Made by a program: the position numbers and the translations under genes
Shown here: positions 6,001 through 19,704 of the stretch, piece after piece
How positions within the stretch are numbered: the stretch's first letter is position 1
Layout: each line of letters opens with the position of its first letter
The notes under the pieces: generated by a model
Databases searched by the model: none
The model's input: only the letters and a program-made list of their open reading frames with translations
What the model was told of the DNA's origin: nothing
From: Amycolatopsis sp. WQ 127309
GTDB taxonomy: Bacteria; Actinomycetota; Actinomycetes; Mycobacteriales; Pseudonocardiaceae
Assembly (NCBI RefSeq): GCF_023023025.1
Contig: NZ_CP095481.1
Location: forward strand, 7,329,001-7,393,000
Length of the DNA: 64,000 nt
Direction of reading: 5' to 3'

Positions 6001-9000
6001 TGCGGACCTGCCCGCCGGGGACCTCACCGTCTGCCCGGTCTGGGAGCCGCACCGGCCCGCCGAGGTCTCCTCCGGCGGCGCCGTGCTCGCGATCGGGCTG
6101 TCCGCCGCCGAGGCCGAGGCGATCGGGGCGTCCGGGACCGAAGTGTCCACTGAGGACGATGGCGAAATCGACCGGGTCGTCGTGCGGGTTCCGACTCGTG
6201 CCGGAGGTACCGCGGCCGAGCGCGTCGAAGAACACCGCCGCGCGACCCGGCGGCTGTTCCGCGTCCTCAACCAGCTGCAGGCCCGCCACGGCGACCGCGA
6301 CTTCGAGCTGACCCTCGTCACCCACGACGCCTTCACCCGGGACCCGGCCCAGGCCGGCCTGCACGGGCTCGTCGGCGGGCTCGCCAAGGAGCAGCCGCGG
6401 TGGCGCGTCAGGGCCGTCGACCTCGCGGCGGACGAGCCGTTCCCGGCAGCGGAGGTGTTCGGGCTGCCCGCCGACCGTCGCGCCCATCCCTTCCGGCGCA
6501 CCGGTGGCCAGTGGCTGCGTCGCCGGCTGGTGCCGGTCGAGCAGGCCGCCACGACCGCCGCGTTCCGCCGCGGCGGGGTGTACGTCCTCACCGGTGGCGC
6601 CGGGGACCTCGGCGTCGTGCTCAGCGAGTACCTGACCCGCACCTACGACGCCCGGCTCGTCTGGGTCGGCCGCCGTCCCGAGGACGACGGGATCCGCGCT
6701 CGGCGCCAGGGGAGCAACGCGGAGTACCTGCAGGCCGACGTCGCCGATCCGGCCGAGCTGCGCGACGTCCGTGACGAAGTCCTCCGTCGCCACGGCCGGA
6801 TCGACGGCGTCGTCCACCTGGCCATGACGTTCAGCCACACCCCGCTGGCCGAGCTGAGCGAGCCGGCTCTCGAAGCGACGCTCAAGTCCAAAGTGGACCC
6901 GTGCGTGCACTTCGCCGACGTCTTCGCCGGGGACGATCTCGACTTCGTGCTGCTGGTGTCGTCGCTGGTCAGCTTCATCCGCAACGCCGAGCAGGCGCAC
7001 TACGCCGCGGCCTGCGCCTACGTGGACGCGGCCGCCGACGGCCTGCGCGACGCCCTCGGCTGCCGCGTGAAGACCGTCAACTGGGGCTACTGGGGCAACG
7101 TCACCGACGACCTCCTCGACGGCATGGCCGCCCTCGGTCTCGCCCCGATCGAGCCCGCCGCCGCGATGGCCGCCGTCGAGGGGCTGCTCGCCGGGCCGCT
7201 CGACCAGATCGGGTTCCTGCGGCTCGGCCGGCCGCTGCCGGTCGAAGGGGTGCTCACCGGCGAGACCGCCGTGGTGCGGCTCCCGGCGGCAGCTATACCG
7301 GCTGAACCGGTCACGCCGCAGCTGCCCGACGCGCTCGCCACCTACCAGGCCGGCCCGGTGCCCGCCGAGATCGACGCCGCCCTGGCCCGCTGGGTCGCCG
7401 CCGAGCTGCGGGAGGCCGGGCTCACCGGCGCCGGCGAGCGGTTCGCCGCCTGGCTGCCGCCGATGCTGCGGGTGCTCACCGGCCACGGCCTGATCGACGC
7501 CGGCCGGTGGATCCCGGGACCGGACGCCGCGACCTGCCGCGCCGGGTGGCAGCGTGACGCGGAACGCTGGGCCGCGGCCAACCCCGACCTGCGCACGCCC
7601 CTCGACCTGCTCGGCCGGACCGTCCCCGCCCTGCCCGCCGTGCTGCGCGGCGACGTCCTCGCCACCGACGTCCTCTTCCCCAACGGCTCCTTCGCGCTGG
7701 TCGAGGGCGTCTACCGGGACAACCGGGTCGCCGATCACTTCAACGCCGTGCTGGCCGAACACGTGGCCGGCTTCCTGCGGGCGCGCCTCGCCGCCGAGCC
7801 CGGCGCGCGGCTGCGCGTCCTCGAGGTCGGCGCCGGTACCGGCGGGACCACCCGCGTGGTCCTCGACCGGCTCACCCGCGCCGGGCTGCCGCTCGCCGAG
7901 TACTGCTTCACCGACGTCTCGCGCGCGTTCCTGCACCGCGCCGAAGACGCCTTCGACCACGACTTCCTGACCTACCAGGTCTTCGACGTCGCCGAGCCGC
8001 CGCACGGGCAGGGCCTCGACACCGGCGCGTTCGACGTCGTCATCGCGGCCAACGTCCTGCACACCACCGCCGACGTCCGTGCGACGCTGCGCAGCGTCAA
8101 GGCCCTGCTGCGCGGCAACGGCCTGCTGGCGCTCAACGAGATCAGCGGCTTCTACCTCGTCAACCACCTGACGTTCGGCCTGCTCGACGGCTGGTGGACG
8201 CACACCGACGCCGAACTGCGCGTCCCCGGCAGCCCGGCGCTGTCCCCGGCCGGCTGGGCCGCGGTGCTGGCGCAGGAGGGCTTCACCGGCGTCGCGAACC
8301 CGGCAGCCGACGCCGAGCCGCTCGGGCAGCAGATCGTCGTCGCCCACAGCGACGGCGTCGCCCGCGGGCCGCGCGTGATCGAGGCACCCCCCGCGCCGGA
8401 GGAACCGGCGCCGGTGCGGGAAACGACGTCGATCGCCGCCGTGGTCCTCGAGAAGCTCGCCGACGCGCTGCGGATGGCCGAGAGCGCGATCGACCCGGCC
8501 CGGGCGTTCGCCGACTACGGCCTCGACTCGATCGTCGGCGCGGGGTTCGTCCAGCAGCTCAACGAGTCCCTCGGCCTCGACCTGCTCACCACGGTGATCT
8601 TCGACCACCGCAGTGTCGAGCTGCTCGCCGCGCACATCGCCGAAAGCCACCAGCCGACCGTGCCCGCCGCGGCACCGGAACCGGAAGCGCCGGAGACAGA
8701 CCCGATCGCCATCGTCGGCATCAGCGGCCGGTTCGCGCAGTCACCCGACCTCGACGCGCTGTGGCAGCACCTCGCCGACGGCGACGACCTGGTCGGCCCG
8801 ATCGAACGCTGGGACGTCTCCGGTCCCGAGTGGACGGACGTCGCGTGCCGGGAAGGCAGCTTCCTCGACGGCATCGACGAGTTCGACGCGCGTTTCTTCA
8901 AGATGTCCGGGCGCGAGGCCGCCTACACCGATCCCCAGCAGCGGCTGTTCCTCGAAGAGGCGTGGACGGCGCTGGAGAACGCCGGGTACGTCGGCACCGC

Positions 9001-12000
9001 GCTCGACGACAAGCGCGCGGGCGTCTACGTCGGCTGCACCGGCGGCGACTACACCGCCTGGTTCGACGAGCGGCCGCCCGCACAGGCGGCCTGGGGCAAC
9101 GCGCCCTCGATCGTGCCCGCCCGGGTCGCCTACCACCTGAACCTGCGCGGGCCCGCGATCGCCGTCGACACGGCCTGCTCCAGCTCGATGGTCGCGATCC
9201 ACCTCGCGTGCCAGGGGTTGTGGAGCGGCGAGACGGACCTCGCCGTCGCCGGCGGTGTCGCCGTGCAGACCACGCCGAAGACCTACCTGACGGCCGGCCG
9301 CGCGGGGATGCTGTCCCCGACGGGCCGCTGCCACACCTTCGACGCGGCCGCCGACGGGTTCGTCCCCGGTGAGGGCGTCGGCGTCGTCGTGCTCCGGCGG
9401 CTCTCCGACGCGCTCGCCGACGGCGACCACGTCCACGCCGTCATCCGCGGCTCCGGCATCAACCAGGACGGCGCGACCAACGGGATCACCGCCCCCAGCG
9501 CGACGTCGCAGGAACGGCTCATCCGCGAGGTCCACGAGCGCTTCGGCGTCGACCCGGCCGAGATCGGCCTTCTCGAGGCGCACGGCACCGGCACCAAACT
9601 GGGTGACCCGATCGAGACCGCGGCGCTGGTCCGCGCGTTCGGCGCGGCCGAAGGCTCGCGTGGCTGCGCCCTCGGCACGGTGAAGACGAACATCGGCCAC
9701 ACGATGTCCGCAGCGGGCGTCGCGGGACTGCTCAAGATCGTCCTCGCGATGCGGCACCGGATGCTCCCGCCGTCGCTGCACCACGCCGAGACCAACCCGG
9801 CGATCCGCCTCGGCGGCAGCCCGTTCCACGTCACCACCGAGCTGACGCCGTGGGAGCCGAACGGCCGGGGCAAGCTGGTCGCCGCGACGAGCTCGTTCGG
9901 CTTCAGCGGCACCAACGCACACCTCGTCGTCGAAGAGCCGCCCGCGATCGCGCCGCGCGACGACGACGGCCGCGAGCGGCTGTTCCTGCTGTCCGCGCCC
10001 CGCCCCGAAGCGCTTCGGCAGCTGGTCGAAGGCCTGGCCGAGCACCTGACCGCGCACCCGGACGCGGTGCTCGCCGACGTCGGCTACACCCTCGCGCACG
10101 GCCGGGCCCACTTCGCCCAGCGCGTCGCCTTCGCGGCTTCCGATCGTGAGACTTTGCTGCGGCAGCTGGAAAAATGGCTGGCCGACGGGACGGTCCCCGC
10201 GGCCGCCGAGCTGGAGCGGATCCGGGCGCGGTGGAGCGAAGGCGGGAAGCTCGACGCCGAGTTCACGGGCCGCCGGACGCCGTTGCCGACCTACCCGTTC
10301 CAGCGCCGCGCGGCCTGGGCCGGCGGCGGGACGCCGGAGAGCGCCCTGCCCGCCGGACCGACGGCCCACGAGCCGATCGCCGTCGTCGGGCTGGCCGCGC
10401 GGTTCGCCGACAGCCCGGACGCCGGGAGCCTGTGGGCCCACCTCGCCGCCGGCGACGACCTCGTCGGCGACGTCACCCGCTGGGACCTCGCCGGGAAGCT
10501 GGGCCCGAAGGCGGGCCGCCAGTACGGCAGCTTCCTCGACGACCCGGCGCGGTTCGACGCGCTGTTCTTCAGCGTCTCCGGCACCGAGGCGGTGCACACC
10601 GACCCGCAGCAGCGCGTCTTCCTCGAAGAGTGCTGGCACGCACTGGAAGACGCCGGGTACGCGGGGGAGCGGCTCACCGACCGCGCGTGCGGCGTCTACA
10701 TCGGCGCCTACCCGGGCGACTACCACCAGCTGATCGGCGGCGAGAAGCCCCCGCAGACCATGTGGGGCAACATGGCCTCGGTCATCGCGTCGCGGATCTC
10801 CTACCTGCTCGACCTGTCCGGGCCCGCGATCGCCGTCGACTCGGCGTGCTCCAGCTCGCTCGTCGCCATCCACCTGGCGTGCGACAGCCTGCGGCTCGGC
10901 ACGGTGTCGATGGCCTTGGCCGGCGGCGTGTTCGTCCAGGCGACGCCGCGGCTCTACGAGTACTCGTCCACGGCGAAGATGCTCTCGCCGACCGGGCGCT
11001 GCCGCACCTTCGACGCGTCGGCCGACGGCATGGTGCCCGGCGAGGGCGCCGGGGTCCTGGTGCTCAAGCGGCTGTCCGACGCGGTCCGCGACGGCGACCA
11101 CGTCTACGGCGTCATCAGCGCCTCCGGCGTCAACCAGGACGGCGCCACCAACGGCATCACCGCGCCGAGCGCCCAGGCCCAGGAGGATCTGGTCCGCCAG
11201 GTCCACCGCGACGCGGGCGTGCGCCCGGGCGGCGTCCAGCTGATCGAGGCCCACGGCACCGGCACCCCGCTCGGCGACCCGATCGAGTTCGGCGCCCTCG
11301 CCGAGGCGTTCACCGGCGCGCCCGCGGGTGGGTGCGCGCTCGGGTCGATCAAGACGAACGTCGGGCACACGCAGTTCACCGCGGGGGTCGCCGGCACGAT
11401 CAAGGCGCTGCTCGCGCTGCACCACCGGCAGGTACCCCCGTCGCTGCACTTCGGCCGGGCCAACCCGGCGATTCCTCTGACGGACAGCGCGTTCTACGTG
11501 CCCACGTCGCTGCGCGAGTGGCCGTCGCCGGAGTCCGGGCCGCGCCGTGCGGGCGTGAGCTCGTTCGGCGCCAGCGGGACCAACGCGCACCTCGTCGTCG
11601 AGGAGGCGGCGGGGGCCGATGTGACGCACGCGGCGCGGGACGAGTGGCTGGTCGTGCTGTCGGCGCAGGACGAGACGGCGTTGCGCAGTCACGTCGAGCG
11701 CGTGCTCGCCCACGCCGAGTCACACGACGTCGACCTCGGCGACGCCGCTTACACCCTCGCCGTCGGCCGCCGTCCGGAGAACCTGCGGTGGGCCTGTGTC
11801 GCGCCGGACCGGGCCGCGTGGCTCGACGCCATGCGGGCCTGGCTGCGCGACGGCCGGGCGGACTCGGTCGTCACCGGCTCGGTGCCCGACGAGCTGCCCG
11901 AGATGTCCTCGGTGGACGGGCTGGCGCTGACCGAGGTGGCCGCGCGGTACGTACGGGGCGAGATCCCGTCGTTGGGCGGGTTGTTCGGTGACGGGTTCCG

Positions 12001-15000
12001 GGTGGTGCCGCTGCCCGGCTACCCGTTCGGCGGGGAGCGGTACTGGATCGACGAAGCTCCCTCGACTGTCCACAAGGGATTCGACGGGCACGTCGTCGAG
12101 CTGACCGGGCGCGAGTTCTTCCTGGACCACCACCGGGTGTCCGGGACGCCGGTGCTGCCGGGCGTCGCGTACCTGGAGCTGGCGCGGGCCGCCGCAGAGG
12201 CCGAAGGGTTCGGCCGGACCGGGGTGACGGTGCGCAACGTCGTCTGGACGCGCCCGGCGCGGATCACGGGCCCGACAACCGCCGGGGTCGTCCTCGACCC
12301 GCAGGACGGTGGTTTCGCCTACCGGATCACGACGACCACCGGTGGCGAGACGCAGACGCACGGCCAGGGGCGCGTCGAGCCGACCGTCGCGGCGCCGCCG
12401 CCGAAGGTGGACATCGCCGCGCTGCGGGCGAAGTGCACCCGCCGCACGCTCGATCGCGCAGCTTGCTACGCCCTGTACGAAGGCACGGAGATGGGCCTCG
12501 GCCCGGCGATGCGCGGCATCGAGCAGCTGGAGATCGGCGACGGCCTGATCGTCGCCCGCCTTCGCCGTCCCGCCGCGTCCGGCGACGGCTTCACCGTCAA
12601 CCCGGCGATGCTCGACTCCGCGTTGCAGTCGACGCTCGGCCTCGCGCTGGCGGAGGGCGCGGACGAGGTGTCGGCCGCGCTGCCGTTCGCGCTGACGGAG
12701 GTCCGCGTGCACGCCGCGACGCCGATGGCGGGCTGGGCGGTGATCCGCCCGTCGGCCAACGACCGCCCGGGCACCGTCCGGCGGCTGGACATCGACCTGT
12801 GCGACGAGACGGGCGAGGTGTGCGTGCGGCTGCTCGGCTTCACGTTCCGCGAGCTGCCCGCGCCGGAGAAGCAGGAGCCCGCGCCCGTCGATGACCAGGT
12901 GACCCCGGCCGGACCCGCCACCGAGACTGGGGAGCTGGTGCTGGCCCGCCCCACCTGGCACCCGGCCGCGCCCGTCGCCGGCGCGCCGCGGTTCGTCCGG
13001 CACGAGGTGCTGCTCGCCGGGCTCGACCCGGTCGACCTCACCGACCTCACCGACCTCGACGCCACCTGCACGGTCTTGCCCGACGGCCCCGACCTCGCCA
13101 CCGCGTTCACCCGGCGGGCCGAGCAGCTGCTCACGCACCTTCAGGACGCCGTCGTGGCGAGCCGGGAGGGGCGGGTGCTGCTGCAGGTCGTCGTGCCGGC
13201 GGGGTCACCCGATCTCGCGCTGGCCGGGCTGCTGCGGACCGCCCGCTACGAGCACCCGAAGCTGGTCACCCAGCTCGTGGTCGCCGGGCCGACCGGGCTC
13301 GCCGACCGCCTTCGCCGGGAAGCCGGGGCCGACGACGTCGTCATCCGCGAGGAGGCCGGACGGCGTGCGGTCCCGCAGTGGACACCGCTCGCCGACGCCC
13401 CCGCGGTGCGGCCCTGGCGCGACGGCGGCGTCTACCTGATCACGGGCGGCGCCGGTGGGCTCGGGCGAGTGTTCGCCCAGGAGATAGCCGCCGGTGTGGC
13501 CGAGCCCACGATCATCCTTTGTGGACGTTCGGCGCACGGGCCCGGGAACTACCGGCAGCTGGACGTCACGGACCGGGCCGCCGTCGAGCGGTGTGTCCGG
13601 GACGTCGTCGCCGAACACGGACGCCTTGACGGTGTCCTGCACAGCGCCGGCGTGCTGCGGGACGGCTACCTCGTCAAGAAGGACGTCGCCGACCTGCGGG
13701 CCGTCCTCGCCGCGAAGGTCGCGGGGTTCGTCAACCTCGACGAGGCCACCGCCGGGCTGGACCTCGACTTCTTCATCGGCTTCTCGTCGCTGTCGGCGTC
13801 GGGGAACCCGGGCCAGGCCGACTACGCCGCGGCCAACGCCTTCCTCGACGAGTACGCGGCTCTTCGCGAGAAGCGCGTCGCCGCGGGGGAGCGGCACGGG
13901 CGGACGCTCAGCGTCGGCTGGCCGCTGTGGGCCGACGGCGGGATGCGCGTCGACGCCGCGACCGAGCGGTCCATGCGGGACACCGTCGGCATCTTGCCGA
14001 TGCCCGCCGCGGCCGGCGTCGAAGCCCTGCACCGGGCCTACGGCAGCGGCGAACCCCACGTCCTCGTGGCGTACGGCGACCGGGCGCGGATCGGGGAAAC
14101 CCTGCTGCGCCCCGAAACGGAGGTGACCACCATGCCCGACAGCCTGGTGACGCTGCTGGCCGACCGCGTGTCGCGCCTGCTCGACGTCCCCGCCGACGAG
14201 ATCGAGGGCGGGGTCGACCTGAGCGAGTACGGCTTCGACTCGATCTCCCTCGTGGACTACGTCGGCCTGCTCAACGACGAGTTCGGCCTGACCCTCGTCC
14301 CGACGCTGCTCATCGAGTACCCGACCCTCGACGGCCTGGCCGGGTACCTGACGGAGAACCACAGCGACGTCTTCAGCACGACCCCGGCGCCGGAACCGAC
14401 GCCCGAACCTGCGCCCGAACCTGCGCCCGAACCGGAGCCCGTGCCCGCGCCGGAAGAGCGGCCGGACCTGCTCGCCGAGCTGACGGAACTGACGGCGAGC
14501 GTCCTGCGCCTGCCGGTGGGGCGGATCGAGGGCGGCCGCGAGCTGAGCAAGTACGGCGTCGACTCCCTGTCGCTCACCGAGCTGATCTCGGAGATCAACG
14601 CGCGGTACGGCCTGGCGCTCGACCCGACGCTGCTGTTCGAGTACCCGACGCTCAACGGCCTGGCCGGCTACCTCCGGGAGCATCACGCGGACCGGGTCGC
14701 GCCCAAGCCCGAACCGATGTCCGAACCGAAGCCCGAGCCGGTCGTCGAGACACCCGCAGCCCCGAAGGCCGAGCCGCGGGAAGGCCCCGAACCGATCGCC
14801 GTGATCGGCATGAGCGGCCGGTTCCCGAAGGCCGGCGACATCGCCGAGTTCTGGCGCAACCTCGCCGAGGGCCGGGACTGCATCGGCGAAATCCCCGCCG
14901 ACCGCTGGGACTGGCGCGAGTGCTTCGGCGACCCGATCACCGAACCCAACACCAGCAACGTGAAGTTCGGCGGGTTCATGGACGGCGTCGGCGACTTCGA

Positions 15001-17494
15001 CCCGCTGTTCTTCGACATCTCGCCGCGCGAGGCCGAGCTGATGGACCCGCAGCAGCGGCTGATGCTGCTCTACGCCTGGAAGGCCCTCGAAGACGCCGGG
15101 TACGCGGCCGAATCCGTCGAAGGCAGTGACATGGCCATCGTCGTCGGCACCGCCAGCACCGGTTACCCGACGATGGTCGCGAAGTACTCGCCGGTCGTCG
15201 AACCGTACGACGCCACCGGCGCCGCGCCCTGCCTCGGGCCGAACCGGATGAGCTACTTCCTCGGCGTCCACGGCCCGAGCGAGCCCGTCGACACCGCCTG
15301 CTCCAGCGCGCTCATCGCCACCCACCGCGCGGTCGGCGCGCTGCAGGACGGCACGTCCGACATGGCCATCGTCGGCGGCGTCAACACGGTCCTCAGCAAG
15401 GACCTGCACATCAGCATGAGCAAGGCCGGCATGCTCGCCGAGGACGGGCGGAGCAAGACGTTCTCCGCCGACGCCAACGGGTACGCCCGCGGCGAAGGCG
15501 TCGGGATGCTGGTCCTGAAACGGCTTTCGGCGGCCGAGCGGGACGGCGACCACGTCTACGGGCTGATCCGCGGCACCGCCGAAAACCACGGCGGCCGCGC
15601 GAACTCGCTGACCGCGCCGAACCCGAAGGCGCAGGCCGCGGTCATCCGCGCGGCCCACCGCAAGGCCGGCGTCGACCCGCGCACCGTCGGCTACATCGAG
15701 GCACACGGCACCGGCACCAAACTCGGCGACCCCGTCGAGATCAACGGCCTGAAGGAGGCCTTCCGCGACCTGTACGACGGCGCGGACGTCGCGGGCGCGC
15801 ACTGCGGCATCGGCTCGGTGAAGACCAACATCGGGCACCTCGAGGTCGCCGCCGGTGTCGCGGGCATGATCAAGGTGCTGCTGCAGATGAAGCACCGGAC
15901 CCTGGTGCGGAGCCTGCACTGCGACACCGTGAACCCGTACGTCAAGCTCGACGGGACGCCGTTCTACCTGGTCCGCGAGCAGCAGCCGTGGCCGGCGCCG
16001 GTCGACGACACCGGAGCCGAGCTGCCGCGACGCGCCGGGGTCAGCTCGTTCGCCTTCGGCGGCGCCAACGCGCACATCGTGCTCGAGGAGTACGTCCCGG
16101 CGCCCGTGGACCAGACGCCCGCGGAGCCGCTGCCGGTCGTGTTGTCGGCGACCCACCCCGAGGTGCTGCGCACCCTGGCCGAGAACTGGGTCAAGGCTTT
16201 GAGGGACGGCACCTACACCGACGCCGACCTCACCTCGATCGCCTACACCTCCCAGATCGGGCGCACACCCCACGCCGAACGGCTCGGCTGCGTCGCGGCC
16301 ACCGTCGACGACCTCGCGACCGGGCTGGAGTCCTGGCTGCGCGGCGAGCCGGACGGCTCGATCGTCACCGGCCGCGTCACCCGCGACGACGTCCCGGCGG
16401 CACCCGTGGGCACCGACGCGACGGCCGCGACGAGGGCCTGGGTGCGCGGCGCCGACGTCGGCTGGAGCCGGTGGCACCCGGACGCGCCGCGGCGGATCCC
16501 GCTGCCGACCTACCCGTTCCGGCTGAAGCGCTACTGGCTCGACACAAGCACCCCGGTGGGGGCGGGTACCCCGAAGCTGCACCCGCTCGTGCACACCAAC
16601 ACCTCGGACCTGACCGGCCCGCGCTACACCACCCGCCTCACCGGCCGTGAGTTCTTCCTCGCCGACCACAAGGTCCGCGGTGTCCCGGTGCTGCCGGGCG
16701 CGGCCTACCTGGAGATGGCCCGGGCCGCGGCGGACCTGGCGGGCGGTGACCGGCCGGTCGTCAGCGCCGCCTGGGACCGGCCGCTGCCGGTCGAGCGCGC
16801 CACGGACGTCCACATCGGACTGTCGGCCGACGGCGGTGCCCTGTCCTACCGCGTCTTCACCACCGGCCCGGACGGCGAGCCCGTCGTCCACGGCCACGGC
16901 GAGCTGACCGCGGCGGACGGCAAAACACCGGAGCGGCACGACATCCCGGCGCTGCTCGAAGAGACCGACGGCCGGGTGCTCGACGCGGACGAGTGCTACG
17001 CGCGGTTCGAGCGGCTCGACCTCGGGTACGGTCCCGCGCTGCGGACGATCGAGCGGCTGCACAGCGGCTCGCGGCTCGCGGTGGCGCGGCTCCGGCTGCC
17101 CGCCGAGGCCGGCGCGGAGGCGTTCGTGCTGCACCCGAGCCTGCTCGACGCGGCGTTCCAGGCCACCTTGGGCCTGTTCGCCGCCGACGGCGCCGAAGCG
17201 GTACCCGCCACGCTGCCGCGGTCGGTCGACGCGGTCCGCGTGCTGCGGCCGCTGCCCGCCTCGGCGTGGGCCGTGGTCCGGTTCGGCGAGGGCGGGGCGG
17301 TGCCCGGCGAATACGTCCTCGACGTCGACCTGTGCGACGACGACGGCGAGATCTGCGCCCGCCTGCGCGGCTTCCGCGTCCGGTCCCTCGATCCCGGGCC
17401 GGTCGATCCCGGCGACGAGTTCCTGGCCCAGCTGATCGAGGCGGCCGGTGACGGCGCGATCAGCCTGGCCGACTTCGAACGGAGCCTGACGTGA
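2..17494 (+). CDS. Trans-AT modular polyketide synthase, 5' end cut by window edge
   Basis: Modular PKS with no AT domain after any KS, so extender units must come from a separate acyltransferase (the next gene). The frame is open to the window edge and begins in a post-KS linker (TYPYERQSYW), so the real start and at least one KS lie outside. Counting residues from the GTG at 5: DH (H89, D242), KR (GGAGGIG near 520, Y661), C-methyltransferase (EIGAGTGG near 962), ACP (S1216); KS (C1481 in DTMCAAAL), Pro/Ala-rich linker, KR (Y2333), cMT (near 2610), ACP (S2842); KS (C3058); KS (C3615), DH (H4043, D4204), KR (Y4607), two ACPs (S4746, S4854) joined by an EP-rich linker; KS (C5099), DH (H5555, D5715), short tail. 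All four KSs keep the Cys and both His motifs (HGTGT, NIGH or NVGH). Odd points are the KS-KS tandem without an ACP and an end after KS-DH, with the matching ACP at the start of the next PKS. Three other modules carry or share methylation domains. The stop overlaps the AT gene by 4 bases. Confidence 0.95.
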   Translation, partial: DVLTGEVPADAQPGAVSPSTARDLAGAFVRGAIAQVAEAFPAAARRVVPAPTYPYERQSYWPAAVAAPATPEPSAYRVRLTGEEFFLADHHVNGQAVLPAVLSLEFARRAVTPGTAFAPAGLRDLVWSAPFPVDATGADLTVEREGAAFRIRRDATDIHAQGRYTEPETADTVPLDAVRERCTARSLTAAQCRAALDAVGIRHGARLRALDRLAIGDGEVLAKLVVPAAARGADLAVHPALLDSAVQAVVGLFGDPAGTLAERDGRPALPFAVDAVDILTPTAETMWAHVRRATDGTEVTTVDIDVCDDAGRVAVRLRGLAFRRVAETSSPRTALLAPVWDAVSGAGEPAVGSRPVLAGGDAAEQEAFLAAFPGATLLDGELPADVDHVFWLPSGDGVLSVFRLVKALLNDGADGREIGFTAVTRQACRVPGDRTLDATHAGVHGLLGSVAKEYPHWQVRIVDVAADEPVPWDAVANPPAGPYGVVAARRHGEWFRPRLLEVADTPYDTPSAPSGVVVAIGGAGGIGTVWTEHLLRRHGTQVVWIGRRPLDAEIAANQERLAAFGPKPDYVRADASDADDLRRACATIVERHGPVHAVLHTAIVLGDQSVARMTEERFRTTYAAKADIAVNLAEVFADQPLEFVAFFSSMQAFFTAPGQANYAAGCTFADAYADRLTERLGCPVKVMNWGYWGGVGIVAEDGYRQRMARLGLGSIEPAEGMAAFDRLLTSPFDRLALLKAADARSIAAFYEDSALTALPAGSSSPVADLLAARPDRSADIERVRVAADGHGRSMEAALVRITWALLRDLGLFARPGTAAELLAAGGIEPRYERWLTHTLDVFVRTGLLRSADGRYEAVSPSPADLAEAWRRWDADRAPWLASEGKRPQAVLVDTTVRALPDILTGRRPATDVMFPKSSLELVEAVYRNNPVADYFNDVLADTLVEHVRARVAADPAARLRILEIGAGTGGTSAVLFRRLAPWRDNIETYCYTDLSKAFLLHARRAFGDIAPYLDPRIVDIEKPLDEGFGGFDVAVATNVLHATRNIRATLTNTKAALRANGVLLLNELSDNVFFSHLTFGLLDGWWRYDDPALRISGSPGLTPRDWVRALAETGFRPAFIAAEGADDLGQQVFVAESDGVVRQPVPAGGPAFSQVADEPVPVAVTPAPAPVTASPDRETELLERARDHFRALVADVLQLPVASVRADVTFDRYGIDSILVVQLTEAVRKDLDNVGSTLFFEVRTIDGLARHFAETQPDALAALVGFAAAQEPEVPEAAVTRVVEPVPDPVVESVPPARADEEIPIAVIGMAGRYPGARDLTEFWANLLAGTDSVTEIPGDRWDHDRYYDPRRGAPGKTYAKWGGFLDGVDEFDPLFFGISPGAASTMDPQERLFLESAYETLQDAGHTRDSLRAAARARVGEDAGDVGVFAGAMYTEYQLYGAEQAVRGEPVVVPGSLASIANRVSYFFDASGPSIAVDTMCAAALSAIHLACAALRRGECGAALAGGVNLSLHPSKYLMIGQTQFAASDGRCRSFGEGGDGYVPGEGVGTVLLRPLADAEADGDRILGVIRGSAVNHGGHTHGFTVPNPRAQGAVIRQVYRKSGVDPRRVGYVEAHGTGTPLGDPIEIAGLTSAFGEFTDARQFCALGSVKSNIGHLEAAAGIAGLSKVLLQMRHGTFAPSLHAGQVNPEIDFSATPFVLQRDAAPWPRDGGVPRAGVVSAFGAGGANAHLLVEEYIVPERAQGPAAAQAVVLSALDEDRLRESAARLRDDLSTRTDADLADIAYTLQVGREPMPARFATVATSIDTLVAALDAYVRGAELPPDTFAGTGLSGTLAALAADDDFHETLVRWGARGKLAPLAEAWASGVEVDWSRLHADGPRPRRLGLPAYPFARERYWYTDVVPGNQKRAGAAPGGSTTVAASAGPASSAKQTEPGGPTAFATQAAFPSPVAAEVPVLPAATATAPAVTSVPAVREATAPVPAAPAPLATAPVSGAAAGADLPAGDLTVCPVWEPHRPAEVSSGGAVLAIGLSAAEAEAIGASGTEVSTEDDGEIDRVVVRVPTRAGGTAAERVEEHRRATRRLFRVLNQLQARHGDRDFELTLVTHDAFTRDPAQAGLHGLVGGLAKEQPRWRVRAVDLAADEPFPAAEVFGLPADRRAHPFRRTGGQWLRRRLVPVEQAATTAAFRRGGVYVLTGGAGDLGVVLSEYLTRTYDARLVWVGRRPEDDGIRARRQGSNAEYLQADVADPAELRDVRDEVLRRHGRIDGVVHLAMTFSHTPLAELSEPALEATLKSKVDPCVHFADVFAGDDLDFVLLVSSLVSFIRNAEQAHYAAACAYVDAAADGLRDALGCRVKTVNWGYWGNVTDDLLDGMAALGLAPIEPAAAMAAVEGLLAGPLDQIGFLRLGRPLPVEGVLTGETAVVRLPAAAIPAEPVTPQLPDALATYQAGPVPAEIDAALARWVAAELREAGLTGAGERFAAWLPPMLRVLTGHGLIDAGRWIPGPDAATCRAGWQRDAERWAAANPDLRTPLDLLGRTVPALPAVLRGDVLATDVLFPNGSFALVEGVYRDNRVADHFNAVLAEHVAGFLRARLAAEPGARLRVLEVGAGTGGTTRVVLDRLTRAGLPLAEYCFTDVSRAFLHRAEDAFDHDFLTYQVFDVAEPPHGQGLDTGAFDVVIAANVLHTTADVRATLRSVKALLRGNGLLALNEISGFYLVNHLTFGLLDGWWTHTDAELRVPGSPALSPAGWAAVLAQEGFTGVANPAADAEPLGQQIVVAHSDGVARGPRVIEAPPAPEEPAPVRETTSIAAVVLEKLADALRMAESAIDPARAFADYGLDSIVGAGFVQQLNESLGLDLLTTVIFDHRSVELLAAHIAESHQPTVPAAAPEPEAPETDPIAIVGISGRFAQSPDLDALWQHLADGDDLVGPIERWDVSGPEWTDVACREGSFLDGIDEFDARFFKMSGREAAYTDPQQRLFLEEAWTALENAGYVGTALDDKRAGVYVGCTGGDYTAWFDERPPAQAAWGNAPSIVPARVAYHLNLRGPAIAVDTACSSSMVAIHLACQGLWSGETDLAVAGGVAVQTTPKTYLTAGRAGMLSPTGRCHTFDAAADGFVPGEGVGVVVLRRLSDALADGDHVHAVIRGSGINQDGATNGITAPSATSQERLIREVHERFGVDPAEIGLLEAHGTGTKLGDPIETAALVRAFGAAEGSRGCALGTVKTNIGHTMSAAGVAGLLKIVLAMRHRMLPPSLHHAETNPAIRLGGSPFHVTTELTPWEPNGRGKLVAATSSFGFSGTNAHLVVEEPPAIAPRDDDGRERLFLLSAPRPEALRQLVEGLAEHLTAHPDAVLADVGYTLAHGRAHFAQRVAFAASDRETLLRQLEKWLADGTVPAAAELERIRARWSEGGKLDAEFTGRRTPLPTYPFQRRAAWAGGGTPESALPAGPTAHEPIAVVGLAARFADSPDAGSLWAHLAAGDDLVGDVTRWDLAGKLGPKAGRQYGSFLDDPARFDALFFSVSGTEAVHTDPQQRVFLEECWHALEDAGYAGERLTDRACGVYIGAYPGDYHQLIGGEKPPQTMWGNMASVIASRISYLLDLSGPAIAVDSACSSSLVAIHLACDSLRLGTVSMALAGGVFVQATPRLYEYSSTAKMLSPTGRCRTFDASADGMVPGEGAGVLVLKRLSDAVRDGDHVYGVISASGVNQDGATNGITAPSAQAQEDLVRQVHRDAGVRPGGVQLIEAHGTGTPLGDPIEFGALAEAFTGAPAGGCALGSIKTNVGHTQFTAGVAGTIKALLALHHRQVPPSLHFGRANPAIPLTDSAFYVPTSLREWPSPESGPRRAGVSSFGASGTNAHLVVEEAAGADVTHAARDEWLVVLSAQDETALRSHVERVLAHAESHDVDLGDAAYTLAVGRRPENLRWACVAPDRAAWLDAMRAWLRDGRADSVVTGSVPDELPEMSSVDGLALTEVAARYVRGEIPSLGGLFGDGFRVVPLPGYPFGGERYWIDEAPSTVHKGFDGHVVELTGREFFLDHHRVSGTPVLPGVAYLELARAAAEAEGFGRTGVTVRNVVWTRPARITGPTTAGVVLDPQDGGFAYRITTTTGGETQTHGQGRVEPTVAAPPPKVDIAALRAKCTRRTLDRAACYALYEGTEMGLGPAMRGIEQLEIGDGLIVARLRRPAASGDGFTVNPAMLDSALQSTLGLALAEGADEVSAALPFALTEVRVHAATPMAGWAVIRPSANDRPGTVRRLDIDLCDETGEVCVRLLGFTFRELPAPEKQEPAPVDDQVTPAGPATETGELVLARPTWHPAAPVAGAPRFVRHEVLLAGLDPVDLTDLTDLDATCTVLPDGPDLATAFTRRAEQLLTHLQDAVVASREGRVLLQVVVPAGSPDLALAGLLRTARYEHPKLVTQLVVAGPTGLADRLRREAGADDVVIREEAGRRAVPQWTPLADAPAVRPWRDGGVYLITGGAGGLGRVFAQEIAAGVAEPTIILCGRSAHGPGNYRQLDVTDRAAVERCVRDVVAEHGRLDGVLHSAGVLRDGYLVKKDVADLRAVLAAKVAGFVNLDEATAGLDLDFFIGFSSLSASGNPGQADYAAANAFLDEYAALREKRVAAGERHGRTLSVGWPLWADGGMRVDAATERSMRDTVGILPMPAAAGVEALHRAYGSGEPHVLVAYGDRARIGETLLRPETEVTTMPDSLVTLLADRVSRLLDVPADEIEGGVDLSEYGFDSISLVDYVGLLNDEFGLTLVPTLLIEYPTLDGLAGYLTENHSDVFSTTPAPEPTPEPAPEPAPEPEPVPAPEERPDLLAELTELTASVLRLPVGRIEGGRELSKYGVDSLSLTELISEINARYGLALDPTLLFEYPTLNGLAGYLREHHADRVAPKPEPMSEPKPEPVVETPAAPKAEPREGPEPIAVIGMSGRFPKAGDIAEFWRNLAEGRDCIGEIPADRWDWRECFGDPITEPNTSNVKFGGFMDGVGDFDPLFFDISPREAELMDPQQRLMLLYAWKALEDAGYAAESVEGSDMAIVVGTASTGYPTMVAKYSPVVEPYDATGAAPCLGPNRMSYFLGVHGPSEPVDTACSSALIATHRAVGALQDGTSDMAIVGGVNTVLSKDLHISMSKAGMLAEDGRSKTFSADANGYARGEGVGMLVLKRLSAAERDGDHVYGLIRGTAENHGGRANSLTAPNPKAQAAVIRAAHRKAGVDPRTVGYIEAHGTGTKLGDPVEINGLKEAFRDLYDGADVAGAHCGIGSVKTNIGHLEVAAGVAGMIKVLLQMKHRTLVRSLHCDTVNPYVKLDGTPFYLVREQQPWPAPVDDTGAELPRRAGVSSFAFGGANAHIVLEEYVPAPVDQTPAEPLPVVLSATHPEVLRTLAENWVKALRDGTYTDADLTSIAYTSQIGRTPHAERLGCVAATVDDLATGLESWLRGEPDGSIVTGRVTRDDVPAAPVGTDATAATRAWVRGADVGWSRWHPDAPRRIPLPTYPFRLKRYWLDTSTPVGAGTPKLHPLVHTNTSDLTGPRYTTRLTGREFFLADHKVRGVPVLPGAAYLEMARAAADLAGGDRPVVSAAWDRPLPVERATDVHIGLSADGGALSYRVFTTGPDGEPVVHGHGELTAADGKTPERHDIPALLEETDGRVLDADECYARFERLDLGYGPALRTIERLHSGSRLAVARLRLPAEAGAEAFVLHPSLLDAAFQATLGLFAADGAEAVPATLPRSVDAVRVLRPLPASAWAVVRFGEGGAVPGEYVLDVDLCDDDGEICARLRGFRVRSLDPGPVDPGDEFLAQLIEAAGDGAISLADFERSLT
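14390..14445 (+). repeat. Short in-frame tandem repeat encoding an Ala-Pro-Glu-Pro linker
   Basis: Imperfect 12-base units (core GCGCCCGAACCT) encode repeated APEP between the two tandem ACPs of the first PKS. Such Pro/Glu/Ala linkers are usual flexible tethers between carrier domains, and the repeat probably varies in length between strains. Confidence 0.6.
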
Positions 17495-19704
17495 AAGCGG
17501 TGATCTTCCCCGGCCAGGGCGCCCAGGTGAAGGGCATGGGCCGCGAGCTGTTCGACGCCTACCCCGAGCAGGCCGACCAGGCCTCGGGCCTGCTCGGCTA
17601 CTCGATCCGCGAGCTGTGCCTCGACGATCCCCGGCGCGAGCTGAACCGCACGGAGTTCACCCAGCCCGCGCTGTTCGTGGTCGGCGCGCTGGCCCACCGG
17701 CAGTGGCGCGAGCAGCATTCCGAAGCGCCCGCGTTCTACGCCGGGCACAGCCTCGGCGAGTACTGCGCGCTGCACGCCGCCGGCGCGTTCGACTTCGCGA
17801 CGGGCCTGCGGCTCGTCCGGCGCCGGGGCGAGCTGATGGCCCGGGCCGAGGGCGGCGGCATGATCGCCGTCACCGGCCTCGACCGCGACCAGGTCACGGC
17901 GCTGGTGCGCGAAGGCGAGTTCTGCACCCTGTCGGTGGCGAACGACAACTCGCCCCAGCAGTGCGTCGTCTCGGGGGACGCCGAATCGATCGACGAGCTG
18001 GGCGCGTTCCTGCAGGACCGGGGCGTCCGCTGGGTCCGGCTGCGCGTGTCCGGCGGCTTCCACTCCGCGCTGATGCGGCCGGCCCAGCAGGAGTTCCGGC
18101 GCTTCCTCGACGCCTTCGACCTCGGCACGCCGGACGTGCCGGTGATCGCCAACGCGACGGCGCGGCCCTACTCGGCCGACACCACGGCCGGGGTGCTCAC
18201 CGACCAGATCGTGCAGCCGGTGCGCTGGACCGAAACCGTGCGGCACCTGCTCGACGCGGGCGTCACGGACTTCGTCGAGCTGGGCGGCACGGTGCTGACC
18301 AAGCTCGTCGAGCAGACGCGAGCCGCGTCCCGGGCGCCGGTGCTCCGGCCCCAGGACCTCGGTAGCGCCGCTTTCCGTGAGCGACACGGCCTTCGCTTCG
18401 CGTACGTCGCCGGCGGGATGTACCGCGGGATCGCGTCACCGGAGCTGGTCATCCGGCTGGGCCGCGCGGGGATGCTCGGCTTCCTCGGCACCGGCGGCAG
18501 TGAGCCGGCCGAGATCGAGCGTGGGATCAAGGAGATCCAGGCCGCCCTGGCCGGGGACCAGCCCTACGGCGTCAACTTCATCGCGAACCACGACGATCCC
18601 GCCGCCGAGGAGGGCGTGGTCGACGTCCTGCTGCGGCACGGCGTCCGGCTGGTCGAGGCGTCGGCGTTCATCCAGATGACGCCCGCGCTCGTGCGCTACC
18701 GCGTCACGGGCCTGCGACGCGGGCCCGGCGGTGAGCCGGTGTGCGAGCACCGCGTACTGGCGAAGGTGTCCCGGCCCGAGGTCGCGTCGGCTTTCCTGGC
18801 GCCGCCGCCGGCCGCGGTCCTGGACCGGCTTCGCAAGGACGGCGTGATCACCGCCGAGCAGGCCGAGCTGGCCCGGCGGGTGCCGATGAGCCACGACGTC
18901 ACCGTCGAGGCCGATTCCGGCGGGCACACCGACGGCGGCATCCCGACCGTGCTGCTGCCGTCACTGCTCGAACTGCGCCGCCGCGCGCAGGCCGAGCACG
19001 GCTACGCCGAGCCGGTCTGCATGGGCCTGGCCGGCGGGATCGGCACGCCCGCCGCCGTCGCGGCCGCGTTCGTGCTCGGCGCCGACTACGTCCTCACCGG
19101 CTCGGTCAACCAGTGCACCGCCGAGGCCGCGACCAGCGACGTCGTCAAGGACATGCTGCAGGACATCGACGTGCAGGACACCGACTACGCGCCGGCCGGT
19201 GACATGTTCGAGCTCGGCAGCCGGGTCCAGGTGCTGCGCAAGGGCGTGTTCTTCCCGTCGCGCGGCAACAAGCTCCACGCGCTCTACAGCCACCACGACG
19301 GCATCGACGACCTGCCCGCGAAGACTCGGGCGCAGCTGGAGCGCACCTACTTCCGCAAGCCCCTGGACGACGTCTGGGCCGACGTCGTCGGGCACCTGCG
19401 CGCGAGCGGCCGCGCGGAGCTGGTGGAGCGCGCCGAAAAGCAGCCGAAGCAGAAGATGGCGCTGATCTTCCGGCGCTACTTCGGTTACAGCGCGCGGATC
19501 GCGCTGGAAGGCAGCCGCGAAGACAAGGTCAACTACCAGGTCCACACCGGACCGGCCCTGGGTTCCTTCAACCAGTGGGTGAAGGGCACCCCGCACGAGT
19601 CCTGGCGGAACCGGCACGTCGACGAGATCGGCCTGCTGCTGCTGGACGGCGCCGCCCAGCACCTCGCGGCGTTCTCACGAGTAGCGAAAGGACAGACGAC
19701 ATGA
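17491..19704 (+). CDS. Trans-acting acyltransferase fused to PfaD-type enoyl reductase
   Basis: A 737-residue bifunctional partner of the AT-less PKSs. Residues 1 to about 290 are a malonyl-CoA:ACP transacylase: FPGQGAQ near the N-terminus, active-site S87 in GHSLGEY, and a GGFHS motif of the malonyl-specific type. From about residue 295 the sequence is a PfaD-like FMN-dependent enoyl reductase (AYVAGGMYRGIAS, and GLAGGIGTPAAVAAAF in the barrel). AT-ER fusions of this kind are known from other trans-AT clusters, such as LnmG of leinamycin. The enzyme would load malonyl units on the ACPs and may reduce enoyl groups made by the DH-KR modules, none of which has its own ER. Start is GTG overlapping the PKS stop (GTGA), and the end overlaps the P450 start (ATGA), so the three genes look translationally coupled. 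Confidence 0.95.
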   Translation: MKAVIFPGQGAQVKGMGRELFDAYPEQADQASGLLGYSIRELCLDDPRRELNRTEFTQPALFVVGALAHRQWREQHSEAPAFYAGHSLGEYCALHAAGAFDFATGLRLVRRRGELMARAEGGGMIAVTGLDRDQVTALVREGEFCTLSVANDNSPQQCVVSGDAESIDELGAFLQDRGVRWVRLRVSGGFHSALMRPAQQEFRRFLDAFDLGTPDVPVIANATARPYSADTTAGVLTDQIVQPVRWTETVRHLLDAGVTDFVELGGTVLTKLVEQTRAASRAPVLRPQDLGSAAFRERHGLRFAYVAGGMYRGIASPELVIRLGRAGMLGFLGTGGSEPAEIERGIKEIQAALAGDQPYGVNFIANHDDPAAEEGVVDVLLRHGVRLVEASAFIQMTPALVRYRVTGLRRGPGGEPVCEHRVLAKVSRPEVASAFLAPPPAAVLDRLRKDGVITAEQAELARRVPMSHDVTVEADSGGHTDGGIPTVLLPSLLELRRRAQAEHGYAEPVCMGLAGGIGTPAAVAAAFVLGADYVLTGSVNQCTAEAATSDVVKDMLQDIDVQDTDYAPAGDMFELGSRVQVLRKGVFFPSRGNKLHALYSHHDGIDDLPAKTRAQLERTYFRKPLDDVWADVVGHLRASGRAELVERAEKQPKQKMALIFRRYFGYSARIALEGSREDKVNYQVHTGPALGSFNQWVKGTPHESWRNRHVDEIGLLLLDGAAQHLAAFSRVAKGQTT

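What the first reader, a model, noticed from the sequence alone, without database searches (positions are those of the whole stretch)
8700..11620. Two complete ketosynthases in tandem with no carrier protein between them
In the first PKS, a KS (C3058) is followed by its normal post-KS linker (ends PLPTYPF) and then at once by a second KS (C3615). No ACP, KR or other domain lies between. Both keep Cys and both His motifs, so neither is an obvious dead domain. A KS normally hands its product to the ACP of its own module, so the first of the pair has no ACP. It could be a relay, a gate, the scar of a lost module, or the docking point for a trans-acting ACP or enzyme.
Basis: partly seen in the sequence, partly recalled or inferred. 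Interest (0 to 1): 0.72.

Follow-up and report, generated by a model that had tools for sequence, protein, structure and literature searches.

The report
Back-to-back ketosynthases pooling two carriers
In an antibiotic-type assembly line, two chain-extending enzymes sit side by side because the carrier domain that separates them in sister bacteria was lost long ago, and the two carriers further downstream may now serve both, which would bend the rule that every extender has its own carrier.

Summary
A complete KS (Cys codon 9176) runs into a second complete KS (Cys codon 10847) with only the normal post-KS subdomain and 23 residues between PLPTYPF and KS2; both keep Cys-His-His. It is not an assembly collapse: 10 strains (own, Lentzea, Saccharothrix, Amycolatopsis, Streptomyces and others) share the junction. 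Ten sister lines have a live ACP between the KSs and three have MT-ACP; the tree makes KS-KS derived, one origin. The junction lies just after LPTYPFx5W, the published trans-AT fusion motif. The line looks like a glutarimide-type trans-AT PKS. New here: the KS2 module ends in twin ACPs. Where the inter-KS ACP is missing, the first twin keeps its attachment Ser (10 of 10); where it is present, that Ser is mutated (10 of 10: Pro, Arg or Leu). KS1 is under the same purifying selection as its neighbours, and KS2 sits in a clade of KSs that follow non-reducing modules. Best reading: KS1 still elongates, borrowing the downstream ACP pair, and KS2 takes the chain back for the next round. An engineered tandem KS (Science 2024) made a doubly extended product. 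The mechanism is inferred; each ACP change is only one or two events on the tree.

The parts
8417..8635 (+). ACP of the upstream KS-KR-MT-ACP module (M5), donor to KS1
   Evidence: ACP HMM 74 bits, YGLDSI
8681..9979 (+). KS1 core (M6 ketosynthase), Cys codon 9176, DTACSSSM, EAHGTGT at 9575, KTNIGHT at 9683
   Evidence: KS HMM 650 bits; Pfam ketoacyl-synt; catalytic motifs kept in 10 of 10 KS-KS strains; dN/dS 0.215 over 4 strains
9980..10318 (+). KS1 post-KS (flanking) subdomain ending in LPTYPFQRRAAW (LPTYPFx5W, 10283-10318)
   Evidence: fusion motif of PMC11260071
10319..10369 (+). 17-residue linker where ten sister lines carry an ACP and three carry MT-ACP
   Evidence: inter-KS sequences of 14 proteins, of L011-L013, own count; architectures
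10358..11653 (+). KS2 core (M7 ketosynthase), Cys codon 10847, DSACSSSL, EAHGTGT at 11246, KTNVGHT at 11351
   Evidence: KS HMM 632 bits; in a 34-row clade whose rows all follow KS-ACP, KS-MT-ACP or a KS directly (selected rows)
12095..12853 (+). DH of M7
   Evidence: own DH HMM 287 bits
13427..13930 (+). KR of M7
   Evidence: own KR HMM 175 bits
14132..14347 (+). ACPa, first of the twin ACPs, with attachment Ser (GFDSISL 14231-14251)
   Evidence: Ser at this position in 10 of 10 KS-KS strains, replaced in 10 of 10 KS-ACP-KS strains
14450..14671 (+). ACPb, second of the twin ACPs, with attachment Ser (GVDSLSL 14555-14575)
14774..16126 (+). KS of M8 (DTACSSAL), acceptor of the bimodule's product
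17491..19704 (+). discrete AT fused to an NMO-type (trans enoyl reductase-like) domain; would load the ACPs in trans
   Evidence: Pfam Acyl_transf_1, FabD_helical_ins, NMO

Best explanation
KS1-KS2-DH-KR-ACPa-ACPb is a fused two-extension unit of a glutarimide-type trans-AT PKS. The ancestor had KS1-ACP-KS2-DH-KR-ACP(s); the ACP directly after KS1's LPTYPFx5W motif was lost once (shown by comparison). KS1 remains an elongating KS: it takes the chain from the M5 ACP (expected to be alpha-methyl-beta-hydroxy, from KR-MT) and condenses it with malonyl on one of the two downstream ACPs (inferred). That beta-keto chain is passed back to KS2, whose clade follows non-reducing modules, and KS2 extends it onto the other ACP, where KR and DH act (inferred). 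So two KSs draw on a pooled pair of ACPs instead of each owning one. Direct KS-to-KS transfer is not needed and is chemically unlikely (recalled PKS chemistry).
For: Sister lines keep an ACP (10) or MT-ACP (3) at the junction. KS-KS is one derived clade, 97/97, on the KS2 tree rooted with the M4 KS (22 strains plus 7 outgroup rows; P0132 not in it). At the first twin-ACP position the Ser is present in 10 of 10 KS-KS strains and replaced (Pro 6, Arg 3, Leu 1) in 10 of 10 KS-ACP-KS strains, so Ser-bearing ACPs number two for the two KSs in all strains whose record can be read to the next KS. KS1 is not decaying: dN/dS 0.215 against 0.205 (KS2), 0.194 (M5 KS), 0.179 (M8 KS), and 0.221 for KS1 in sister lines that have the ACP (4 and 4 strains, NG86, no error bars). 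First-twin dN/dS is 0.293 in KS-KS strains, 0.602 in the others. Two fixed differences in KS1 between 10 KS-KS rows and 9 others. KS2 sits in a 34-row clade (SH-aLRT 97), all rows preceded by KS-ACP, KS-MT-ACP or a KS directly. Three sister lines have an MT between KS1 and its ACP, which implies that KS1 elongates there. [quoted passage not shown] the ACP count is my reading of the text, figures not seen). Transfer of a chain from ACP back to KS is shown for gladiolin module 5 (PMC10921412, passages).
Against: No product was found for any of these clusters, so two extensions are unproved. The ACP loss and the first-twin mutation are each about one or two events on the tree, so 10 against 10 is not 20 independent observations. 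On the ACP tree the first twin of KS-KS strains does not group with the first twin of sister lines (86 columns, long branches), so they are matched by position, not by shown orthology. The second twin in KS-KS strains has dN/dS 0.569, near the 0.602 of the mutated first twin in sister lines, which speaks against equal need of both, though 72 residues give a noisy figure. DH and KR lie beside the twins, so a KS1 product held there might be reduced, which KS2's ancestry would not predict. KS2 carries 5 fixed substitutions (T162S two residues before the Cys, S195A, S274A, L279V, A341T), which could mean a changed substrate. The rows of the KS2 clade were selected: from named lines I kept those after KS-ACP, KS, KS-MT-ACP or KS-KR-MT-ACP, plus 12 outside relatives; of the 25 nearest outside KSs of KS2, 6 follow KS-DH-KR-MT-ACP and 1 KS-KR-ACP. 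Twin ACPs can serve flux alone (recalled). dN/dS shows constraint, not catalysis.
Confidence: 0.47

Rival explanations
1. KS1 is bypassed. After the ACP was lost, the M5 ACP hands its chain straight to KS2; KS1 stays only as part of the dimeric scaffold with its flanking subdomain.
For: No ACP of its own. Shortening of glutarimide-type lines is reported (PMC7930024, passages). Five fixed changes in KS2 could reflect a new substrate.
Against: KS1 keeps Cys and both His in 10 of 10 KS-KS strains and normal dN/dS over 4 of them, across several genera. KS2's clade is that of KSs after non-reducing modules, not after KR-MT (selected rows).
Confidence: 0.24
2. KS1 is a non-elongating gate or relay: it selects the chain from the M5 ACP and moves it to a twin ACP without adding carbon, and KS2 then extends it.
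For: A non-elongating KS acting as transacylase is shown for hangtaimycin (PMC8456789, passages). The first twin ACP bears its Ser exactly where KS1 lacks its own ACP.
Against: The non-elongating KS in that paper has Cys-Asn-His; KS1 keeps Cys-His-His in 10 of 10. Three sister lines carry a methyltransferase between KS1 and its ACP, which implies that KS1 made a beta-keto chain there.
Confidence: 0.16
3. A trans-acting ACP serves KS1, docking between the two KSs; the free ACP of the cluster or one elsewhere in the genome.
For: A free 88-aa ACP gene exists (L009:2753-3019); other free ACPs in the genome were not searched.
Against: It lies between the AT-thioesterase and asparagine-synthase genes, the kind of set proposed to make the starter in known glutarimide lines (PMC7756379, PMC10574677, passages). 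The 17-residue linker is too short for a domain. It would not explain the first-twin pattern.
Confidence: 0.1
4. Assembly collapse or misannotation.
For: PKS repeats are a known risk; PMC7930024 itself warns of misassembly (passages).
Against: The same junction in 10 strains from separate records, three of them on contigs of 10 to 11 Mb (P0005, P0007, P0009).
Confidence: 0.01

Closest known systems
Engineered tandem-KS chimera of the oocydin PKS (PMC11260071, Science 2024; passages and part 2 of 6 read)
   Same: Two elongation-competent KSs joined after LPTYPFx5W with no ACP between; the authors report the doubly extended product 3.
   Different: Man-made, ends in an ACP-C part, called unexpected there; here natural, conserved, with twin ACPs and DH-KR.
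Glutarimide trans-AT PKSs (cycloheximide, 9-methylstreptimidone, migrastatin, lactimidomycin, gladiostatin; PMC7756379 passages)
   Same: Starter set AT, ACP, AsnB; first module KS-DH-KR-ACP-KS-B-ACP; then KR-ACP, KS-ACP, KS-DH-KR-MT-ACP in the same order as in S. noursei L028.
   Different: After M4: KS-KR-MT-ACP, then the KS-KS bimodule; no product found.
KS-CLF pairs (polyunsaturated fatty acid synthase PfaC, type II KS-alpha/KS-beta; recalled)
   Same: Two KS-type domains side by side with no ACP between.
   Different: In KS-CLF the second lacks the active Cys; here both are complete. L015 of Anaeromicropila is nearer to that kind.
Dehydrating bimodules of trans-AT PKSs (PMC8456789, passages)
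   Same: Two KSs and two ACPs cooperate across a module boundary.
   Different: There an ACP separates the KSs, and the second KS of type A is non-elongating (Cys-Asn-His in hangtaimycin).

Membership tests
trans-AT PKS | No AT inside the modules; a discrete AT elsewhere | tested here: met
   No AT match in the PKS ORFs scanned; discrete AT genes at window 17491-19704 and L009:877-2760
trans-AT PKS | KS followed by a flanking subdomain ending in LPTYPFx5W | tested here: met
   10283-10318; Pfam post-KS linkers
Glutarimide PKS | AT, free ACP and asparagine-synthase genes | tested here: met
   L009:877-2760 AT plus thioesterase, L009:2753-3019 PP-binding, L009:3025-4995 Asn_synthase
Glutarimide PKS | First module KS-DH-KR-ACP-KS-B-ACP | tested here: inconclusive
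   Order met apart from B; the B stretch matches Pfam RhiE_B at E 0.0013, under its cut-off, and the RhiE structure sequence at E 2.4e-18 over residues 48-166 of 366 only
Glutarimide PKS | Glutarimide product | not testable with these tools
   No product record found in two paper searches
Non-elongating KS (KS0) | Loss of a catalytic residue (His, as in Cys-Asn-His) | tested here: not met
   Cys and both His kept in KS1 and KS2 in 10 of 10 KS-KS strains
KS-CLF pair | Second KS lacks the active Cys | tested here: not met
   DSACSSSL in KS2 in 10 of 10
Functional tandem KS as in the ooc chimera | Two extensions with no ACP between the KSs | not tested
   Needs product or in vitro assay

The most novel reading that the evidence does not exclude
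A natural two-KS/two-ACP bimodule in which neither KS owns an ACP: both elongations draw on a shared downstream ACP pair, the chain going back from ACP to KS2 between rounds. Sister lineages would then show three ways of ending with two usable ACPs (lose the inter-KS ACP, mutate the first twin, or keep a single downstream ACP), which makes the ACPs interchangeable across the module boundary and breaks strict one-KS-one-ACP colinearity.
Probability: 0.4. Interest if true: 0.78.

Novelty: new variant of a known kind. Interest (0 to 1): 0.6.

Why it matters
Module boundaries and carrier ownership decide how PKS products are predicted from sequence and how lines are spliced. Here evolution seems to have run the experiment that engineers found working unexpectedly: a KS without its own ACP inside a line, kept long enough to be found in several actinomycete genera. 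Three sister states (KS-ACP-KS, KS-MT-ACP-KS, KS-KS) in otherwise matching lines make the question of whether a KS needs its own ACP directly testable. Colinearity-based prediction would miscount this product by one ketide under one reading or the other.

Tried and rejected
Assembly collapse: rejected, 10 strains. A hidden, degenerate ACP between the KSs: rejected; 17 residues follow LPTYPFx5W here and orthologous linkers are likewise short and plain. That the second twin ACP is the inter-KS ACP moved downstream: rejected; on the ACP tree it lies with the second twins of sister lines (94/92, not starred) and the inter-KS ACPs lie in another clade (86 columns). My first idea that only KS-KS lines have twin ACPs came from a regex that demanded DS (noted) and was wrong: sister lines have the twin too, with the first Ser mutated. 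Recent duplication within the pair: rejected; KS2 is nearest to the KS of M4 (62%) and KS1 and KS2 fall in different clades. KS1 decay: not seen. Paper searches for a natural tandem KS found only the engineered one in PMC11260071. Of the 5 papers I opened one, PMC2613160 (passages), whose 'KS-KS' strings look like the two Pfam halves of single KSs; the other 4, and the other 5, were judged from the listing. One search gave 3 papers, of which I read passages of two. The library holds open-licence papers only, so none of this shows absence from print. No fold prediction was run: it would not tell which ACP a KS uses.
Full report
What is there. The frame window 2-17494 (+) is part of a 7493-aa PKS (P0005). 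Its domain order is KR-ACP-KS-ACP-KS-DH-KR-MT-ACP-KS-KR-MT-ACP-KS1-KS2-DH-KR-ACPa-ACPb-KS-DH. KS1 occupies 8681-9979 and KS2 10358-11653; the stretch between holds KS1's flanking subdomain, the motif LPTYPFQRRAAW at 10283-10318, and 17 further residues. Both KSs keep Cys and both His motifs.

The cluster. Upstream lie an AT-thioesterase gene, a free 88-aa ACP, an asparagine-synthase gene and a PKS with KS-DH-KR-ACP-KS-(B)-ACP-KS. That is the set described for glutarimide lines in PMC7756379 and PMC10574677 (passages); the B domain match is weak. Modules 2 to 4 (KR-ACP; KS-ACP; KS-DH-KR-MT-ACP) have the order seen in Streptomyces noursei L028 and four similar loci, which I take for cycloheximide-type lines from memory. 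The genome is one contig of 11.13 Mb. A genome of its family, G051, carries a contig of the same length as the Lentzea xinjiangensis contig of L012, so the host is probably one of the Pseudonocardiaceae (inference). The product is unknown to me.

Not an artefact. A protein search (best 120 of 889 listed) and a genome-contig scan returned orthologues. Ten strains have KS1-KS2 with no ACP between: own, P0016, Streptomyces milbemycinicus P0006, Lentzea P0007, P0008, P0009 and L. xinjiangensis L012, Saccharothrix coeruleofusca P0012 (= L014), Amycolatopsis rifamycinica L011, and S. nanshensis L013. Ten strains have KS1-ACP-KS2: P0010, P0011 (= L016), P0013 (= L101), P0015, P0018, L017, L019, L095, L096, P0132. 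Three have KS1-MT-ACP-KS2: P0014, P0017, and S. ruber L113. Records of the same strain were counted once, by name or contig length.

Direction. On the KS2 tree rooted with the M4 KS, the ten KS-KS rows form one clade (97/97), the nine KS-ACP-KS rows another (100/99) and the three MT rows a third (100/99); the MT rows are sister to KS-KS with weak support (83/79) (22 strains, P0132 not included). The KS1 tree keeps the KS-KS rows together only weakly (62/48), S. nanshensis being divergent. In the 34-row clade the 24 rows that are not KS-KS are all preceded by an ACP. So an ACP was most likely lost once. The junction lies directly after LPTYPFx5W, which PMC11260071 picks out by statistical coupling as a fusion site, noting that natural recombination is common at the C-terminus of KS domains (passages; part 2 of 6).

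The twin ACPs. All ten KS-KS strains have two ACPs after the KR, both with the attachment Ser (L. xinjiangensis again). All ten KS-ACP-KS strains also have an ACP at the first twin position, but its Ser is replaced: Pro in six (P0010, P0011, P0018, L017, L019, P0132), Arg in three (P0015, L095, L096), Leu in one (P0013). In nine of the ten the second twin follows with its Ser; L017 ends before it. The three MT strains show a single ACP with Ser, though P0017 ends just after it. So every record that can be read to the next KS has two Ser-bearing ACPs for KS1 and KS2. Against over-reading this: on the tree these are one or two events each, and on the ACP tree the first twins of the two groups do not group together (86 columns, long branches), so the comparison is by position.

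Selection. Over four KS-KS strains (own, L011, L012, L014; six pairs) dN/dS is 0.194 for the M5 KS, 0.215 for KS1, 0.205 for KS2 and 0.179 for the M8 KS. Over four KS-ACP-KS strains (L016, L019, L017, L095) it is 0.300, 0.221, 0.174 and 0.178. The first twin has 0.293 in the former and 0.602 in the latter; the second twin 0.569 and 0.382; the M5 ACP 0.456 and 0.308 (NG86; only three pairs for the M5 KS, M8 KS and second twin in the latter; no error bars). KS1 is therefore maintained, and the first twin is the best kept ACP where the inter-KS ACP is missing. Between the ten KS-KS rows and nine others there are two fixed differences in KS1 and five in KS2.

What KS2 expects. The clade of KS2 and the M4 KS (34 rows, SH-aLRT 97) contains only KSs that follow KS-ACP, KS-MT-ACP or, here, a KS directly. 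The rows were chosen: from the named lines those after KS-ACP, KS, KS-MT-ACP or KS-KR-MT-ACP, plus 12 outside relatives; the four of those 12 that follow a KR fell outside the clade. By BLAST, of the 25 nearest outside KSs of KS2, 12 follow KS-A-MT-A, 6 KS-DH-KR-MT-A, 5 KS-MT-A, 1 KS-KR-A and 1 KS-A. PMC7756379 speaks of a beta-keto thioester on the module 3 ACP (passage), the substrate of the M4 KS. KS2 thus probably descends from acceptors of unreduced chains. If KS1 were bypassed, KS2 would receive the product of the KR-MT module M5 instead.

Mechanism. A KS must meet malonyl on an ACP and leave its product there; KS-to-KS transfer without an ACP is not expected (PKS chemistry, recalled). 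The cis ACPs nearest to hand are the M5 ACP upstream and the twin downstream. I propose that KS1 elongates onto one twin ACP, KS2 takes the chain back and elongates onto the other. Two published results make this plausible: the ooc chimera with a tandem KS still gave the doubly extended product 3 (PMC11260071; that only one ACP follows is my reading of the text), and gladiolin module 5 iterates by passing its product from ACP back to KS (PMC10921412, passages). The same paper lists 9-methylstreptimidone, a glutarimide, among proposed cases of module iteration. Shown here: anatomy, conservation, a derived loss, the first-twin pattern, constraint on KS1. Inferred: that KS1 elongates, which ACP it uses, the order of steps.

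How unusual. In 166 fetched proteins 9 of 791 neighbouring KS pairs lack an ACP; seven are this junction. The other two lie in one metagenome protein, P0164: an N-terminal KS-like domain without the Cys followed by a KS, and KS-KS-KR-MT-ACP with both Cys. L015 of Anaeromicropila populeti has a KS followed by a dead KS. So tandem KSs recur but are rare in this similarity-drawn sample, and I found no account of a natural one in the open library (searches; most hits judged from the listing).

Verdict. A real, conserved, derived domain arrangement; new variant of a known kind (trans-AT PKS module architecture). Interest 0.6, higher if pooling of ACPs is demonstrated.

Noticed in passing
L015, + strand ORF (Anaeromicropila populeti, NZ_FOYZ01000004.1): KS followed directly by a KS-like domain that has lost the Cys (NTDSSSGM) and the usual His motifs, then two ACPs with Ser: a KS-CLF-like pair inside a trans-AT PKS.
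   Followed up: partly
P0164 residues 1184-2228 and 47-923 (metagenome protein, 6498 aa): Another PKS with a KS-KS-KR-MT-ACP tandem (both Cys kept) and an N-terminal KS-like domain without Cys directly before a KS.
   Followed up: partly
window 14774-17494 and 21016-27780: Module 8 is split: KS-DH ends one protein and an ACP begins the next PKS, with an AT-ER gene and a P450 gene between; no KR was found for this module.
   Followed up: no
L009:5020-14016 and L009:14013 onward: Module 2 is split between genes: KS at the end of one PKS, KR-ACP at the start of the next.
   Followed up: no
L009:877-2760: AT fused to a thioesterase domain, next to the free ACP and the asparagine-synthase gene.
   Followed up: no
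L095, L096, P0010, P0011, P0013 (= L101), P0015, P0018, P0132, L017, L019: An ACP whose attachment Ser is lost (Pro, Arg or Leu) is kept in place as the first of a twin; over 4 of these strains its dN/dS is 0.602, about twice the 0.293 of the Ser-bearing ACP at that position in 4 KS-KS strains.
   Followed up: yes
P0014, P0017, L113: A methyltransferase domain sits between KS1 and its ACP in three Streptomyces lines, a further variant of the same module.
   Followed up: partly
G000 whole genome: 130 matches to the KS pair in an 11.13 Mb genome; many lie near 5.9-6.2, 8.0-8.4 and 9.7 Mb, which suggests several large PKS clusters.
   Followed up: no
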